Below, piece by piece: positions 1-46,966 of a stretch of DNA of 49,384 nucleotides (the stretch's first letter is position 1; the number at the start of each line of letters is the position of its first letter). Origin of the DNA: Firmicutes bacterium M10-2 (GTDB taxonomy: Bacteria > Bacillota_I > Bacilli_A > Erysipelotrichales > Erysipelotrichaceae). The translations under genes were made by a program, and so were the position numbers. The notes beneath the pieces are model-generated. The model saw nothing but the letters and a program-made list of their open reading frames with translations. It did no database searches and was not told where the DNA came from. The stretch covers positions 523,675-573,058 of the forward strand of contig KE159681.1 of the NCBI GenBank assembly GCA_000403415.2, read 5' to 3'.

Positions 1-1151
1 GTTAATGTACGTATGTCAAAATATCCTGTCTTTCTTCTTCCGAATATGAAATATTCGTTATTTTGATATTGTACTTTATCAAATAGCCGATATCTGTGTA
101 CAACGTATTCAGCCTGATTACGTTTCCGTATACCATGTTTGGTTGGTTTGGTTTTGTGTATTTGTCTGTTATGACAGCGTACTTTCTTTTGATAGTAATA
201 ATATGGCAATGGTTTTGCTTTCGGATTTTTCGAAATACATCTTGCATCTACATAATGCTCTTTCGCAAGATTGTTCCCAATACGGGTGTTCTTGGTGATG
301 TATCCGTACGTCATGTGAACATCCGGGTATATGTTTTTCAGCATATCATAGCATGACCATCGCATGATTCCCATGAAGGCGGCATCTTTGAATGACATAC
401 CGCGTTTGATTGTTTTTGGTAATATTACTTTTCCGTTATGATATCCGGTATGACAGGTTTCACATAGTGTAATCAGATTGTTTGGTGCATTGCCGCCAGT
501 CTGTCTGGATTCTATATGATGGACATTTAAAATGTTATCTTTCGAACGTCCTTTACAGCATTGGCAGGTGTGGTTATCACGGAATAATACGTATTCGCGT
601 ACATTCCAAAAATCAAGCTGTTCACCTTTTTGGTATTGTACACCATGAATATCCGGGTGTTTGATTTTTTGGATGTCAAAACTTGCCGTTTCAATGAGAA
701 TGGTTTTTGTCGGCAGTAGTTTATGGACGTTTGCAATAACCGTTAAATGACATTGTATTCTCTGCCGGATGCTTGGTGCTAACCATCCCGGTTTCCTGCT
801 ATGTGTCCGGTTTTGAAAGCGTGGCTTGCGATATCGTGTTTTACGGCTTCTACGTGAACGTCTTAATTCGCGTCTGGCAGCAAGCAGTTTTACAATGTCA
901 TTACGGAGTTCTATTTCTGCAGCATAAAGTTCCTTTTGCTTGGTTGTTGCAGAGAGTCCGATCTGTTTACTGCCGGCGTCTACGCCCAGTGTAATGTCTT
1001 GTGTATAATGTGTACTGTTATATAGTAACTGAATTGTGAACGGACAGCGCTTTATAACTTTTGCTTTGCCTGATTTGAGTAAATGTCTTACTTTACCATG
1101 CCGTTCGGTTGGCATAAGCGGCTGTCCTGATTGATCCAATACGTATACCAT
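1..1151 (-). CDS. iscB: IscB RNA-guided HNH/RuvC endonuclease (partial, 3' end off window)
   Basis: An open frame of 383 codons without a stop runs from ATG 1151 to the left edge. IscB proteins are omega-RNA-guided DNA nucleases of IS200/IS605-group elements and relatives of the Cas9 ancestor. Visible in order: the diagnostic PLMP motif (residues 11-14), RuvC-I GVDAGSKQIG (Asp58), an arginine-rich bridge helix (about 88-112), RuvC-II ILIETASFD (Glu154), an HNH domain with CxxC at 196/199, HH at 211-212 and CETC at 230-233, and RuvC-III HYVDA (Asp302). All catalytic positions are present. About 40 C-terminal residues are probably missing on the left. AAAGGAG lies 10 nt before the start. No TnpA is visible. 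TnpB is excluded by the PLMP and HNH order; Cas9 is excluded by size. Confidence 0.93.
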   Translation of the reverse strand, partial: MVYVLDQSGQPLMPTERHGKVRHLLKSGKAKVIKRCPFTIQLLYNSTHYTQDITLGVDAGSKQIGLSATTKQKELYAAEIELRNDIVKLLAARRELRRSRRSRKTRYRKPRFQNRTHSRKPGWLAPSIRQRIQCHLTVIANVHKLLPTKTILIETASFDIQKIKHPDIHGVQYQKGEQLDFWNVREYVLFRDNHTCQCCKGRSKDNILNVHHIESRQTGGNAPNNLITLCETCHTGYHNGKVILPKTIKRGMSFKDAAFMGIMRWSCYDMLKNIYPDVHMTYGYITKNTRIGNNLAKEHYVDARCISKNPKAKPLPYYYYQKKVRCHNRQIHKTKPTKHGIRKRNQAEYVVHRYRLFDKVQYQNNEYFIFGRRKTGYFDIRTL

Positions 1152-1550: not shown

Positions 1551-2498
1551 CGTCACCTCGCGAATTTTTCGAATCACTTTTTGTATTTCAATCGAATCGT
1601 TCAGGCTCATTCTTTCGCTTTCCGTCTTTCCTGCATTCAAGCAACGTTCCACCTCTTCGATCTGGGAGTAAAAATCATCGTGATCATAAGGAACGCACAC
1701 TTCTTCGATCTTGCCGTCTTTCCTTGCGATCACAATCTTTTCCGGACGATAAAACGGCTCGCACACAATCGTTCCTCGATCTCCGTAAATGATCATTTCA
1801 GGTGATTTTCTTTCATCCATTGCCATTTCCAAAAATCCTGTTTGCCCGCCTTTAAAACGAATCGTAATCCGATCATGCACATCAACCCCTTGCATAAAGG
1901 TTGCTTTGTTTTCTACTTTCTCAATCGGCGCATGAATATAATCCAAAAGACTGGCAATATTGTAGCTGCCGACATCATTCAATATTCCGCCTTGGTCTTT
2001 TTCGAACAAATACCTTGGATCCATTCCTTCTTCCATCCTATAGCAAAACCGGTTTTCCACTCTCTCGATTTTTCCGATCGCTCCTTGTTCCAGCAATTCT
2101 TTCAAATGCTTTACCATCGGAAGAAATCTTGTTTTCATGGCTTCCATGAAGAACACATGATTTTTTCTTGCGATCAAAGCGAGATCTTCCATCTCTTCCA
2201 CACTTAATACGGCCGGTTTTTCGCAAAGTACGGCCTTTCCTTTTTGAAGGGCTTGTTTCGCCCACCGATAATGATCCTTATGCCACATTGCCAAATACAC
2301 CACATTGACATTTTCATCTTCCAGCAATGCATCGTAATTGTCATAAGTCACGATGTTCGGACACAACGTTTTGAACTCTTCCCTTTTTTCTTTGCTGTGA
2401 CTTGCCACGGCCACCAGACGCCCTTCTTTGCTGAAGGAAAGTCCTTTGACGAATCGATGAGCGATATTTCCGGCTCCTAAAATTCCCCAACCAATCAT
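1533..2498 (-). CDS. Gfo/Idh/MocA family NAD(P)-dependent oxidoreductase
   Basis: A 321-residue cytoplasmic dehydrogenase of the usual family length. The N-terminal Rossmann fold shows MIGWGILGAGNIA (residues 1-13). The family EKP motif is intact as CEKPAVLS near residue 95, followed by the C-terminal alpha/beta substrate domain. I start it at 2498, because AAAGGAG sits 8 nt before that ATG and the glycine-rich strand follows at once; a longer reading would add 16 residues with no family match. It is the last gene of the manA operon, 25 nt after the LacI-like gene. Such enzymes oxidise or reduce a sugar or sugar phosphate at one carbon; the substrate cannot be read from sequence. The hairpin terminator overlaps its stop. 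Confidence 0.9.
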   Translation of the reverse strand: MIGWGILGAGNIAHRFVKGLSFSKEGRLVAVASHSKEKREEFKTLCPNIVTYDNYDALLEDENVNVVYLAMWHKDHYRWAKQALQKGKAVLCEKPAVLSVEEMEDLALIARKNHVFFMEAMKTRFLPMVKHLKELLEQGAIGKIERVENRFCYRMEEGMDPRYLFEKDQGGILNDVGSYNIASLLDYIHAPIEKVENKATFMQGVDVHDRITIRFKGGQTGFLEMAMDERKSPEMIIYGDRGTIVCEPFYRPEKIVIARKDGKIEEVCVPYDHDDFYSQIEEVERCLNAGKTESERMSLNDSIEIQKVIRKIREVTKDPEI

Positions 2499-2523
2499 AG
2501 AGGCTCTCCTTTCCCGCTCTTTT

Positions 2524-3342
2524 TTACCTTGTCGAATCTCTTTCAATCAATGAAACTTCGATGATTTCTTCTTGCTCATACGTTTCATGATTGATCTGCC
2601 CCATCAATTGACGGCAGGCACTCATGGCAATCTGTTTCGGATTGCGATCCATAGCCGTAATCGATGGTGTGGCCATAGCCGTATAAGGCGAGTTGTCGAA
2701 TGTAATAAGCTTTACATCTTCGGGAACATAGTAGCCGACTTTCTCTAATGCGGTCATGGCTCCGAATGCGGCCCGATCGCTCGAAGCAATGATCCCATCG
2801 ATCTTTTCTCCGTCATACAGCAGTCTTTCGATGATTTCTTCGGTTTCCGTTTCTGTATTGCGGATGCCCGCCCTTTTGAGAACATATTCTTCTTTCCACT
2901 CAATACCGTGTTCTGCCAACGCCTCTTCGTATCCGACAACACGTGGGCTGATTTGTCCTTGTGCTAAAAATCCGGGACATAAAACAATTTTCTTACAACC
3001 TTTTTCGATCAAATAATTGACTGCATCCTTGCAGGCTGCCTTATCGTCATTTGCACTCCACGCAAGGGAGAACGCACTTTTCGGCTTGCGATCCACAAGC
3101 ACGAACGGATACGCTTTTTCGATCAGGTTTTCTTCGATTTCATCCAATCCCGAAATGCATACAATGCCTTGGCATACAGTTTGAAGTTCGCGAATATATT
3201 CTTTTTCGTTTTCCGCTTTATTTTGGCAAGAAGCAACAAGAGTCAAATAACCCGCCTTTTTCATTTGCTTTTCCACTTCATAAGCGATCTTGGCAAAAAA
3301 GATATTGTCTAAAGTCGGTACGATCATTCCAATCGCTTTCAT
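2524..3342 (-). CDS. LacI-type sugar-binding protein lacking the HTH domain
   Basis: This 272-residue protein matches the effector-binding part of LacI/GalR repressors (type I periplasmic-binding-protein fold): MKAIGMIVPTLDNIFF at the start, then GIVCISG, FVLVDRKP, a long core, and GIIASSDRAAFGAM with DVKLITFDNSPY near the C-terminus. Full LacI regulators have about 60 further N-terminal residues with the helix-turn-helix and hinge; here they are absent. The start is well supported: AAAGGAG lies 8 nt upstream and the epimerase stop is 2 nt before it. There is no signal peptide, so it is not an ABC binding protein. It may be a DNA-binding-free sugar sensor, a dimerising antagonist, or a 5'-truncated regulator kept by the operon. 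Confidence 0.85.
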   Translation of the reverse strand: MKAIGMIVPTLDNIFFAKIAYEVEKQMKKAGYLTLVASCQNKAENEKEYIRELQTVCQGIVCISGLDEIEENLIEKAYPFVLVDRKPKSAFSLAWSANDDKAACKDAVNYLIEKGCKKIVLCPGFLAQGQISPRVVGYEEALAEHGIEWKEEYVLKRAGIRNTETETEEIIERLLYDGEKIDGIIASSDRAAFGAMTALEKVGYYVPEDVKLITFDNSPYTAMATPSITAMDRNPKQIAMSACRQLMGQINHETYEQEEIIEVSLIERDSTR

Positions 3343-3344
3343 CC

Positions 3345-3995
3345 TTATTCTCCTTTCAAATGATCGATCAGCTCTTTATATGTCTTTCCTTTTTTGAACA
3401 AAGCGCTTGATCCCAAGATGAACCCGTCTGCGCCAAGCGCGGAAAGATCTTCGATCACATCCGGAGAACAATGGCCGTCGATCATGACTTTAAAGCCGTA
3501 CTGATCTTTCAATTCAATGAGCTGCTGTACCTTCTTACGGGTAAAGTCAATGAATTTTTGTCCCGCAAATCCCGGATTGACAGTCATGACCAGCACATAG
3601 TCGCAAAGATTCAAAATTTCCGAAATGCTGGCAATGCTCGTATCCGGATTGATTGCGATTCCCGCATAAGCGCCCCGCTCTTTAATATGGGCGAGTGTTT
3701 TGACAACATAACGTTCCGATTCCGGATGGATATAAATGATATCGGCACCCGCATCAATGAACCAGTCCACTTTAGAGGCCGGATTTTCGATCATCAAATG
3801 GCAATCCACCAATTTATCGGTATAACGTCGTATAGTCTGCACATCCATAACGCCCATCGTAAAATTCGGGACAAACGTACCATCCATAATATCGCAATGA
3901 AAAATATCCACTCCCGCATCATCCAGTGCGCGAACTTCTGTTGCCAAATGGCCGTAATTGGCACACATCATTGACGGGCACAGCAAACGTTTCAT
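3345..3995 (-). CDS. Ribulose-phosphate 3-epimerase family, AlsE-like (allulose-6-phosphate epimerase type)
   Basis: A 216-residue TIM-barrel epimerase. Visible motifs are CPSMMCANYG at the N-terminus, the metal-site stretch HCDIMDGTFVPNFTMG, DCHLMIENP, TVNPGFAGQKF and the phosphate-binding GADGFILGSSALF. The family epimerises C3 of ketose phosphates. The SMMC N-terminus and HPESE after the third strand look closer to E. coli AlsE than to housekeeping Rpe, which fits a catabolic operon, but substrate choice is inference. The start overlaps the VOC stop as ATGA, with GGAG 7 nt upstream, and the LacI-like gene follows 2 nt later, so it is tightly coupled to both. Confidence 0.85.
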   Translation of the reverse strand: MKRLLCPSMMCANYGHLATEVRALDDAGVDIFHCDIMDGTFVPNFTMGVMDVQTIRRYTDKLVDCHLMIENPASKVDWFIDAGADIIYIHPESERYVVKTLAHIKERGAYAGIAINPDTSIASISEILNLCDYVLVMTVNPGFAGQKFIDFTRKKVQQLIELKDQYGFKVMIDGHCSPDVIEDLSALGADGFILGSSALFKKGKTYKELIDHLKGE

Positions 3996-43616: not shown

Positions 43617-43662
43617 TAACAACCACACAAGAGTAGAAATGCTCCTGTGCGGTCGTTTTCTT
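43617..43662 (-). terminator. Long hairpin after the KwaA-like gene
   Basis: 16-nt arms that pair fully on the minus-strand RNA when G-U pairs are allowed (AACGACCGCACAGGAG with its partner). The three variable pairs mismatch on the plus strand, which supports minus-strand use. The T tract is weak. Confidence 0.6.
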
Positions 43663-43691: not shown

Positions 43692-44258
43692 CTATTGTTT
43701 TTTTTCATTTATATCTAGTTTGATTTCATTATTCAGCGATTTTAGATATATGTATTCTCCCTTATGGGTGGTCAGCGTTCTATGACTAATTATTTTCCAT
43801 TGAATAACATTTTTATCTTCATCCTCAAGTTCACAAGTAAACATCTTGTAATTTAGTATTTCCAAACATATATTGGCACTAAAGTGGTTATGGCTAATAC
43901 ATAAAAAGCCTAGCATTACAAAAAAGATGAGAAATAACACTACCTGATCCCATTTTGTAAAATCAAAAGCAAACAAAGGAAGTATGTATGATAATAAATA
44001 TTCAGATGATATTGTTTTATCATCTGCAACATCCTTTACCATAAGCTTTGTGCTTCCTTCCTTTGAATTATGAGCAAATGCAGATTGCAATACTATGAAG
44101 GAAATAATACTTGCTAAGGAAATAACGCAAATACTTATTCTCTCTGTCCATAGATTTTCAGGACTCTCAAAGCGGCTTTTAATATCAATGAAAAGAATTG
44201 AAATCCACAACGGTAAAAATGAGGTGAAGTAAAGGCAACTTGACACAAGTTTAGACAT
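43692..44258 (-). CDS. kwaA: Small membrane protein in the KwaA position (Kiwa-like)
   Basis: 188 residues with four hydrophobic segments (about 6-24, 42-62, 88-100 and 106-126) and a soluble C-terminal domain of about 60 residues. In Kiwa defence systems KwaA is a four-helix membrane sensor that holds the DNA-acting KwaB. This protein follows a KwaB-like gene by 12 nt and has the right size, helix count and EYLLSYILPLFAF segment, but direct sequence identity to KwaA is something I cannot test. AAGGAGG precedes the ATG. Confidence 0.55.
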   Translation of the reverse strand: MSKLVSSCLYFTSFLPLWISILFIDIKSRFESPENLWTERISICVISLASIISFIVLQSAFAHNSKEGSTKLMVKDVADDKTISSEYLLSYILPLFAFDFTKWDQVVLFLIFFVMLGFLCISHNHFSANICLEILNYKMFTCELEDEDKNVIQWKIISHRTLTTHKGEYIYLKSLNNEIKLDINEKKQ

Positions 44259-44270
44259 TTATCAGCCTCC

Positions 44271-45200
44271 TTATTCCCATTTTTTTGAGCTTGATACTTC
44301 CATAGGATTGTCATCAAATGGGTCAACCATACCCCTGTCACATAATAGCTTAATAAGCTTATCAGCTGCTCCCGGCTGGCTCATATCAAATTTATCCCCA
44401 TCCAGAGGAATATTAAATTTCTTGCTCATTTTCTTTCTACTATCTACATTCTTCAGCTTTTGCAAACGTGATTCGTTAAATGAAATAAATTTTCTCGGAT
44501 TGTGTCTACAACTTGCAACACCGCTAAACGCTTCAGCATCATTAATTATGTTTGAATTTGTGATATTAGTGATTTGTTTTTTGCAAACAGCCTTATAAGC
44601 TCTCTCCATATTAAATAAATTCTCTCCGGCAAGTGTGAGCATATAAACAATTTCATCAACAATTACAACATCAATGGCTGGTCTCAGGGAGATGACCTTA
44701 TCAGAAATTTCTGTAAATGTTCCATTAGAACGCAAAAACTTGTGTTTTAATGATGTAACAGGATTTTGCATGGAAATCAGTTTTACTGATAATTCTTCTC
44801 CATCGATAGGAATCACGCCTTTAAGAATATATGCTCGTGCAGAAAATTCAAGAGGGTCAACCTCAGAATCAGGATTTCCAATTGCTTTAATTAATGCTGA
44901 ACATTCTGTTGAAATCAACTCATTGTCGGTAGTCAATTTATAAATCGTTTTATCCACAGTAGATCCGTCATAATCAGTTACGCTCTCAAACATTTTTTCT
45001 AATCCTTTTTCTTGAGAGCAATATCTGTCAGAAATCTCAGACAAAAAATTCGTAAGAGTACCTTCTGGAGATAATGTAATTTCTCGCCCACAATATGTAG
45101 TTCCATTTCTCTTTGAATTCTTAATTTGCAAAAGTTGTAACGAGCAAGCTTCGCAGGTTGCTACTTTTTCAAATATACTTTTTATTTTGTCTATTGACAT
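44271..45200 (-). CDS. kwaB: KwaB-like protein (DUF4868)
   Basis: 309 residues, close to known KwaB length (about 315). The C-terminal half has the DUF4868 style: RPAIDVVIVDEIVYMLTL, NLFNMERAYKAVCKK, CRHNPRKFISFNESRLQKL and KLIKLLCDRGMVDPFDDNPM. KwaB binds DNA and blocks phage replication once released by membrane KwaA. The ATG overlaps the end of the HsdR fragment by 10 bp and has GAGGTG upstream, so the two genes shared an operon before the restriction gene lost its 5' part. The family call is from memory of motifs. Confidence 0.65.
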   Translation of the reverse strand: MSIDKIKSIFEKVATCEACSLQLLQIKNSKRNGTTYCGREITLSPEGTLTNFLSEISDRYCSQEKGLEKMFESVTDYDGSTVDKTIYKLTTDNELISTECSALIKAIGNPDSEVDPLEFSARAYILKGVIPIDGEELSVKLISMQNPVTSLKHKFLRSNGTFTEISDKVISLRPAIDVVIVDEIVYMLTLAGENLFNMERAYKAVCKKQITNITNSNIINDAEAFSGVASCRHNPRKFISFNESRLQKLKNVDSRKKMSKKFNIPLDGDKFDMSQPGAADKLIKLLCDRGMVDPFDDNPMEVSSSKKWE

Positions 45201-46495
45201 TTAAACACCTCACTTAATCGTTTTTTACTATAAAGAGCAGCATCCTCTGCAACTATCATAGGTCTTTGTATAGGAGCAGAATAAGTAAAAAGAACAACTT
45301 TACTTTCTGGAGTTGTTTCAGAATATCCTTCAAAGTTTTCCACCTGCTTCATAACCTTTGTAACCCCTTCAGGACTGTACTGTGGCGAATAACCGTTCTT
45401 AATCAAACAAATCTTGATATCTAGTTTTAACTGGTTACGCACATTCTGATTATTAAGCCAGTCAGCAAATGAAGACTTGGTATCTATGGTTTTCTTAACC
45501 TTTTTAGCAAGCGACTTACACTTATCATTTACCACAACACCATCAATTTCTTTGTCTGTGCCGTATTCAAAATTATACTGGTCATGGAGAGCAATCAAAA
45601 TATCATAGAATGCATTTTCTTCAAAGATTAATCCTATTTTACGGAAGCTCTCACGATTTTCGTTCATCTGGCGAAGTATTGCTAAAGCTTGTTCAGTTAC
45701 AGCCTTAATGATATCTTCTGAGATCGATTCTTTTGTTGCTCCGGCTTCTTCAGCTGTAAGGTGCCTTACGTCTTTCATGGTATTCAGCAATAGTCTTCTC
45801 AAGCATCTCTTGGAAGTCTTTGCTGTTAACTGATTGACCTTGCCATATTCCTTTATCTGCTTACAGAGCATTTTGATAAGTAACTCCAACTTTGTGACTG
45901 GCATTTTTACATCCGATAACTTTTCAAAGCATTTAGGAAAGAACATATCTTCTTCCTCGCCACTTTCAAGAATGATTTCTACCTGATTGTATTTCAATAC
46001 TTCTTCAACCCTCTTTGACACTGCACGATTCATAGTATCGGTATCAACATCACTTGTTCCACTCATTTTACGAACGAAACTTGCTATAGCCATAAAGCAC
46101 TGTGCAAGTACAGACTCTTCTTCGCCAAGATTTCCGGAAGGTTGGCAAATATCAAAAGCACTTCTCATTCTCTTAACGGTCTTTAAGAAATATGTCTTAA
46201 ACGAGACCTGATTAGTCTTTCCATTTGCTTCTGTCTGCAATGCCTGTGTTGATGCAAAGACATATTCAGCTGCTTTAGAAAGCAATTTATATCTTTCAAC
46301 AGGATTCCATTCTGGATTAAGGAATGGTGCTAAGTCATAATCTATGAACAGTGTTTTAAGGATTTCAAGTTCTTCTTTGAATACAGAGATAGCTTGTTCA
46401 ACGTTATCCGATTTAAGCGCAACTAATGTATCACCACCGTAAACCTTCATGGCTTTACGCATATTGTCACGAACCCCAATGTAGTCGATAATCAT
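45191..46495 (-). pseudogene. hsdR: C-terminal fragment of type I restriction subunit HsdR
   Basis: 434 codons that match only the last part of HsdR: MIIDYIGVRDNMRKAMKVYG follows helicase motif VI in the full protein, then the long helical C-terminal domain (FLKTVKRMRSAFDICQ, ENAFYDILIALHDQY, NVRNQLKLDIKICLIKNGYS). The nuclease domain and nearly all of the helicase, about 600 residues, are missing. In-frame sequence reaches a little further up (PGKDYD) and stops where HxsD sequence begins. It cannot translocate or cut DNA. The frame itself is intact, so a product may still be made. Confidence 0.85.
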
Positions 46496-46740
46496 ATCAT
46501 AATCCTTACCCGGATATTTTTTGTTTGTAAATAAATTTCGTGACGAACGCTTTGTGCCAGAATTTCATTTTCAAACTCTTTATCGGATATTTCGCTGTCA
46601 TTGTCTTTCGGCTGAATAAATACATAGTAATCGTGTTCATCGGCATCCAGATGAACATAGGCCCGGTCCGTAAAATTATAAGCCGCCTTAATTAAAGCCG
46701 TTTTTGAATAAAGTTCCCTATTAAATTTTATCTGCTTCAT
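46492..46740 (-). CDS. hxsD: HxsD-like protein (His-Xaa-Ser system), C-terminally truncated
   Basis: 82 residues from ATG 46740, which has GAGGG 9 nt upstream (ATG 46749 lacks spacing). KTALIKAAYNFTDRAYVHLD and ILAQSVRHEIYLQTKNIR fit the HxsD family, small partners of the radical-SAM HxsB/HxsC pair. Homologues continue for some 10-15 residues after TKNIR; here the frame ends with VRIMI, encoded by sequence that belongs to hsdR in the other frame. HxsB, HxsC and HxsA are not present, so it is an orphan relic, though the frame is open. Confidence 0.65.
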   Translation of the reverse strand: MKQIKFNRELYSKTALIKAAYNFTDRAYVHLDADEHDYYVFIQPKDNDSEISDKEFENEILAQSVRHEIYLQTKNIRVRIMI

Positions 46741-46966
46741 TAATCTCATCCCTCACTGTGTTGAAGATCTAACTAATCTACATCAAAACCCTTTCATATT
46801 ATATAAGACTCGTTATTATTAATTGTACCGATTACAGTAAAACGATGTCAATTCCTCTCTGCGCTTTTCATAATATAAATGCTGATTGAATAAAAAGAAG
46901 TGTGTCCCTATAAATCCAACTTTATCGAAGGAGGTCGAAAATCCAAAATTTCCATTGTAAAAAACA

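What the first reader, a model, noticed from the sequence alone, without database searches (positions are those of the whole stretch)
43692..45200. Kiwa-like pair in an operon with a type I restriction subunit
The KwaB-like ATG overlaps the hsdR stop by 10 bp, which implies an old operon hsdR-kwaB-kwaA. It suggests layered defence with restriction first and Kiwa second. Both Kiwa-like genes are intact here though HsdR is not.
Basis: partly seen in the sequence, partly recalled or inferred. Interest (0 to 1): 0.6.

Follow-up and report, generated by a model that had tools for sequence, protein, structure and literature searches.

The report
Kiwa defence pair behind broken restriction gene
Two intact genes of the known anti-phage system Kiwa lie just behind the tail end of a restriction-enzyme gene whose front was lost in a deletion; Kiwa genes turn up behind many kinds of restriction system in other bacteria, so this is a known sort of arrangement in an unusual, half-decayed state.

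Summary
KwaB (44271-45200, -) and KwaA (43692-44258, -) are intact: KwaB passes the Pfam KwaB cut-off (54 vs 26.3 bits), and its AlphaFold2 model matches only solved KwaB structures (Z 16). KwaA matches PADLOC KwaA (5e-18) and solved KwaA. The kwaB ATG overlaps the upstream stop by 10 bp. The upstream ORF (45191-46495) is the C-terminal third of a type I HsdR.

The inference "overlap implies an old hsdR-kwaB operon" is weak. The last 39 codons of that ORF, which create the overlap, lie past the point where its closest relative stops, and the ORF carries a compensated frameshift. Its front was removed by a deletion whose joint (46512-46526) fuses hsdR to the 3' end of hxsD. Today's likely transcript is hxsD-hsdR'-kwaB-kwaA.

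The linkage idea itself fares better. None of the 15 closest kwaB relatives has hsdR upstream, but Kiwa sits directly behind type II, IIG, DpnI-type, type III or Dnd genes elsewhere, and hsdM-hsdS-hsdR-kwaA-kwaB is contiguous in 20 of 5426 E. coli genomes. A Vibrio study clusters Kiwa with type I genes. Kiwa also occurs without restriction genes. "Restriction first, Kiwa second" is untested. A divergent member of a known kind.

The parts
43692..44258 (-). kwaA, membrane subunit of Kiwa, 188 aa, intact; RBS-like AAGGAGG just upstream
   Evidence: PADLOC KwaA 5e-18; NCBIfam KwaA 66 bits, below the equivalog cut-off of 100; solved KwaA 9mrg 7.6e-10; conserved partner of kwaB in relatives; hydrophobic segments
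44271..45200 (-). kwaB, DNA-binding effector subunit of Kiwa (DUF4868), 309 aa, intact; RBS-like AGGTG upstream
   Evidence: PF16162 54 bits, cut-off 26.3; PADLOC KwaB; AlphaFold2 pLDDT 89 matching only KwaB structures
45191..45200 (-). 10-bp overlap of kwaB start and upstream ORF stop
45191..46495 (-). hsdR', C-terminal piece of type I restriction subunit HsdR, 434-codon ORF starting at an internal ATG
   Evidence: PF11867 153.6 bits; PADLOC REase_I 675-1022/1029; 75% identical to L089 over residues 1-395
45191..45310 (-). 39-codon tail of hsdR' (plus stop) beyond the stop of the closest HsdR relative; makes the overlap with kwaB
   Evidence: most HsdR relatives stop within about 12 codons of residue 386-395; tail has no homologue in fetched loci
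45762..45815 (-). stretch of hsdR' read out of frame: 1-bp deletion and compensating 1-bp insertion against L089 (approximate ends)
46512..46526 (-). deletion joint hxsD/hsdR: homology to hsdR begins here, 13/15 identical downstream against 2-3/15 upstream
46492..46749 (-). hxsD (His-Xaa-Ser system protein), last ~10 residues replaced by the joint; stop overlaps the hsdR' ATG
   Evidence: TIGR03976 73.4 bits, cut-off 50, profile 1-80 of 90
46822..46851 (-). promoter-like site TTGACA-18-TACAAT upstream of hxsD, 11 of 12 consensus positions, best in the region
   Evidence: sequence match only; number of sites found is not above shuffles
43619..43656 (-). hairpin just after kwaA, likely end of the transcript
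   Evidence: -26 kcal/mol, z -5.9

Best explanation
This is a complete, divergent Kiwa anti-phage system in B-A gene order. It once lay downstream of a type I restriction-modification operon. A deletion with short shared sequence at its ends joined the 3' end of hxsD to codon ~660 of hsdR and removed everything between. The leftover hsdR C-terminal ORF is a non-restricting remnant that stays open from an internal ATG. Kiwa is now probably transcribed from the hxsD promoter as hxsD-hsdR'-kwaB-kwaA, ending at a hairpin after kwaA. By homology, KwaA in the membrane senses phage attachment or injection, and KwaB binds incoming DNA and blocks replication and late transcription. No restriction activity is needed. 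Shown: the gene identities, the joint, the open frames, the neighbour survey. Inferred: the deletion event, the transcript, and Kiwa activity in this strain.
For: KwaB and KwaA identity by profile, fold and pairing. HsdR lacks nuclease and helicase parts, and hsdR homology starts inside hxsD with an abrupt identity step. Against L089, changes fall at third codon positions (187 against 50 and 48), so the truncation is recent. No second copy of this HsdR or of hxsD in the genome. Promoter-like site and terminator hairpin frame the unit. B-A order is kept in all close relatives with both genes and in the Kiwa of S. thermophilus 90730, which protects against lactococcal phages (PMC11514479). Mechanism as summarised in PMC12904381.
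Against: NCBIfam equivalog cut-offs for KwaA and KwaB are not reached (66 vs 100, 38 vs 200 bits), and KwaB is only 11-16% identical to solved KwaB, so functional equivalence is inferred. The hsdR' ORF has stayed open despite a frameshift pair, which could mean it is still selected. The ancestral intact operon was not seen. Nothing was measured.
Confidence: 0.8

Rival explanations
1. Working operon: type I restriction and Kiwa are a co-regulated layered defence, and this strain has only just lost the restriction part. Selection built the linkage because the two act together.
For: hsdMSR-kwaA-kwaB contiguous in 20 E. coli genomes; Kiwa and type I genes cluster as co-gained in Vibrio (PMC12409351); restriction genes immediately upstream in 8 of 19 non-redundant loci, downstream only in 1 (sign test p 0.039, post hoc).
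Against: The partner varies in biochemical type and is often absent: 5-kb plasmid pMUT2, an Emticicia plasmid, a lambdoid prophage. Each module survives without the other (and this window). General clustering in defence islands gives the same picture.
Confidence: 0.2
2. The HsdR C-terminal piece is not a remnant but a functional small protein, for example a KwaB partner or a leader ORF that couples translation into kwaB.
For: ORF open for 434 codons despite a -1/+1 frameshift pair; strong purifying signal against L089 (dN about 0.14, dS about 2.2); overlaps kwaB by 10 bp and hxsD by a few bases.
Against: Every other HsdR relative found is full length or cut by a contig end; no kwaB relative has such an ORF; both ends are non-ancestral. 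The low dN/dS is what a recent truncation would show.
Confidence: 0.08
3. The hxsD/hsdR joint is an assembly artefact of a chimeric contig.
For: Draft genome in 22 contigs with 3.57% estimated contamination.
Against: The joint lies well inside a long contig, and both sides stay in workable frames with overlapping stop and start.
Confidence: 0.05

Closest known systems
Kiwa (KwaA-KwaB), E. coli O55:H7 type; structures 9mrg, 9mrx, 9mtn, 9nyu
   Same: Two adjacent genes; KwaB DUF4868 profile and whole-chain fold (Z 16); KwaA profile with hydrophobic segments; E. coli copy also sits next to restriction-type genes (vsr, dcm, restriction endonuclease)
   Different: 11-16% identity in KwaB; gene order B-A instead of A-B; below NCBIfam equivalog cut-offs
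Kiwa of Streptococcus thermophilus 90730 (PMC11514479)
   Same: Gram-positive, kwaB-kwaA order, in a defence island with R/M systems; shown to reduce phage plaquing
   Different: Not compared by sequence here; its restriction neighbours were not read in detail
hsdMSR-kwaAB island of E. coli (e.g. MB06101, M159-1)
   Same: Type I restriction operon directly followed by Kiwa, 51-bp gap from hsdR to kwaA
   Different: HsdR only 21% identical; restriction genes intact; order A-B
HindI-like HsdR C-terminal domain (PF11867)
   Same: Whole domain present, 153.6 bits
   Different: Nuclease and helicase parts absent; no hsdM or hsdS next to it

Membership tests
Kiwa | KwaB with DUF4868/KwaB domain | tested here: met
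   PF16162 54 bits vs 26.3
Kiwa | KwaB fold over the whole chain | tested here: met
   Foldseek probability 1.0, VIA Z 15.8-16.1, 269-281 residues aligned to KwaB; next unrelated Z 4.8
Kiwa | Adjacent KwaA membrane protein | tested here: met
   PADLOC 5e-18; solved KwaA 7.6e-10; pairing kept in relatives
Kiwa | Four transmembrane helices in KwaA | tested here: inconclusive
   A simple hydropathy scan finds about three clear segments
Kiwa | KwaA-KwaB supercomplex, DNA binding, phage protection | not testable with these tools
   needs experiment; reported for E. coli Kiwa (PMC12904381)
NCBIfam equivalogs NF041622/NF041623 (narrower group) | Score above the equivalog cut-offs | tested here: not met
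   66.4 vs 100 and 37.6 vs 200 bits: outside this narrower group, not outside Kiwa as defined by Pfam and PADLOC
Type I restriction-modification system | HsdR with nuclease and helicase domains | tested here: not met
   only profile positions 675-1022 of 1029 present
Type I restriction-modification system | hsdM and hsdS next to hsdR | tested here: not met
   none in the window ORF list; the genome's only N6_Mtase-family gene belongs to another operon on contig C12
His-Xaa-Ser (Hxs) system | HxsD | tested here: met
   TIGR03976 73.4 vs 50 bits, C-terminus cut by the joint
His-Xaa-Ser (Hxs) system | Radical-SAM partner HxsB | tested here: not met
   no match over the TIGR03978 cut-off in the genome

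The most novel reading that the evidence does not exclude
Kiwa is functionally coupled to DNA modification: it recurrently sits behind modification-based systems of every chemical type (type I, II, IIG, DpnI, III, Dnd) because KwaB DNA binding, or the products of restriction, feed into one another. The conserved asymmetry (restriction genes upstream, Kiwa downstream) would then reflect regulated order of action.
Probability: 0.08. Interest if true: 0.75.

Novelty: new member of a known kind. Interest (0 to 1): 0.33.

Why it matters
It shows a Kiwa system outliving its restriction partner, while the E. coli hsdMSR-kwaAB island shows the reverse loss. Together they provide natural single-module states for testing whether Kiwa and restriction help each other. 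The survey suggests that Kiwa is a mobile add-on behind restriction operons of many chemistries, which is testable by a census and by one double-deletion experiment in a laboratory E. coli. It also warns that a 10-bp gene overlap can be recent debris rather than an old operon.

Tried and rejected
KwaB in viral contigs, phage and plasmid collections: no relative found, so no evidence of phage or plasmid carriage of this subgroup. The hsdR' tail was searched against all fetched loci: no real match. The idea that L089 was another stand-alone HsdR C-terminal gene (open frame 488 aa) was dropped: its frame runs off the contig end. A broad PF16162 search in the window's own phylum and family gave few hits, so the survey moved to Lachnospirales- and Oscillospirales-type orders, E. 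coli and plasmids. Profile-profile comparison of the KwaB alignment with one E. coli KwaB was uninformative; the fold comparison was used instead. One KwaB-like hit without kwaA (L047) was left out of the neighbour count. The Kiwa paper itself (Cell 2025) is not held in the library; its mechanism is taken from a review.

Full report
What is there. On the - strand between 46749 and 43692 lie four ORFs in a row with overlaps or a 12-bp gap: 46492-46749, 45191-46495, 44271-45200 and 43692-44258. Profiles name them hxsD (TIGR03976, 73.4 bits, cut-off 50), the C-terminal domain of a type I restriction subunit HsdR (PF11867, 153.6 bits), kwaB (PF16162, 54 bits, cut-off 26.3) and kwaA (PADLOC, 5e-18). 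The 10-bp overlap of the kwaB start with the upstream stop is exactly as reported.

Kiwa identity. Sequence scores are modest: NCBIfam equivalog cut-offs are not reached. The fold settles KwaB. An AlphaFold2 model from 12 aligned relatives (pLDDT 89) matches six PDB chains below E 0.001, all KwaB, with Z about 16 over 269-281 residues, while the best unrelated chain has Z 4.8. The KwaA profile picks out only solved KwaA chains. In the relatives whose sequence continues past kwaB, kwaA follows directly: 14 of 15, the exception ending at a contig edge. Order is B-A throughout this group. More distant relatives show A-B (L040/L108, L045) or the two genes facing each other (L043, L044). B-A order is also published for the functional Kiwa of S. 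thermophilus 90730 (PMC11514479).

The hsdR piece is debris with a dated break. The closest HsdR found, L089 (75% amino-acid identity), continues upstream to its contig end, and most others are about 1000-1100 aa. DNA homology between the window and L089 starts abruptly at 46526: 13 of 15 bases match just downstream, 2-3 of 15 upstream. Upstream of that point the sequence is hxsD, which loses its last ~10 residues there. Both genes are truncated at one point, the signature of a deletion; the shared AAAAATATCCGG-like stretch suggests short-homology joining (inference). At the other end, L089 stops at residue 395 and most relatives within about a dozen codons of residues 386-395, while the window ORF runs on for 39 codons into kwaB. 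A 1-bp deletion and a compensating insertion put about 18 codons out of frame. Changes against L089 fall mostly at third codon positions (187 against 50 and 48), so the break is recent compared with that divergence. The 10-bp overlap is therefore not evidence of an old operon, although an old operon may well have existed. The genome has no other copy of this HsdR or of hxsD. Its other type I operon, on contig C12, is separate.

Expression now. The best promoter-like site in the region (TTGACA-18-TACAAT, 46851-46822) is upstream of hxsD, and a strong hairpin follows kwaA (z -5.9). The likely transcript is hxsD-hsdR'-kwaB-kwaA. This is inference: promoter-like matches are no more numerous than in shuffles.

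Is linkage with restriction recurrent? Non-redundant loci with readable upstream flanks were inspected. Modification-based systems lie immediately upstream in 8 of 19: the window (type I remnant), L002 (C5 methylases and type II enzyme), L007 and L013 (type III), L015 (DndCDE with cysteine desulfurase, HNH and methyltransferase genes), L045 (DpnI and methylase), L108 (type IIG and specificity subunit) and L105 (vsr, dcm, endonuclease). Only L003 has such genes downstream and not upstream (8 against 1, sign test p 0.039). The test is post hoc on a convenience sample. None of the 15 closest kwaB relatives has hsdR. In E. coli, however, hsdM-hsdS-hsdR-kwaA-kwaB is contiguous with a 51-bp gap in 20 of 5426 genomes, among 320 that carry a related hsdR. 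That HsdR is only 21% identical to the window's and gene order differs, so the two assemblies look independent. A Vibrio pangenome study lists Kiwa and type I S, R and M genes in one co-occurrence cluster (PMC12409351). E. coli relatives of the island show Kiwa destroyed while hsdMSR stays. Kiwa also stands without restriction genes on pMUT2, an Emticicia plasmid and a prophage.

Verdict. Observation confirmed; interpretation partly supported. Kiwa-restriction linkage is real and recurrent but not specific to hsdR, not obligate, and not shown to be layered. The window adds a Kiwa that outlived its restriction partner after a deletion. Mechanism of Kiwa as in the literature: KwaA-KwaB lattice at the membrane, KwaB binding injected DNA without cutting it (PMC12904381).

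Noticed in passing
window 3-1151 (-): IscB-like protein: RRXRR domain (220.6 bits) and HNH domain; runs off the window end. No guide-RNA search was made.
   Followed up: partly
L101 (G000 contig C12, 455990-465560 approx.): The genome's other type I system has hsdM, hsdR, several hsdS genes with repeated identical stretches and a tyrosine recombinase gene: looks like a phase-variable specificity locus.
   Followed up: no
L008, L009, L011 upstream of kwaB: Same kwaBA and same downstream recombinase gene, but different large NTPase/nuclease-like genes and glycosyltransferases upstream: a cassette-swapping hotspot.
   Followed up: partly
L106 (E. coli Nissle pMUT2), 1777-3569: Kiwa makes up about a third of this 5.5-kb plasmid, and kwaA overlaps the replication gene by 11 bp.
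   Followed up: no
L043 and L044: kwaB and kwaA face each other with overlapping 3' ends, a third gene arrangement of Kiwa.
   Followed up: no
L117, L118: E. coli hsdMSR islands in which Kiwa was destroyed by IS1 or by deletion, leaving a kwaA fragment.
   Followed up: partly
window 46492-46749: Orphan hxsD without an HxsB partner over cut-off in the genome.
   Followed up: partly
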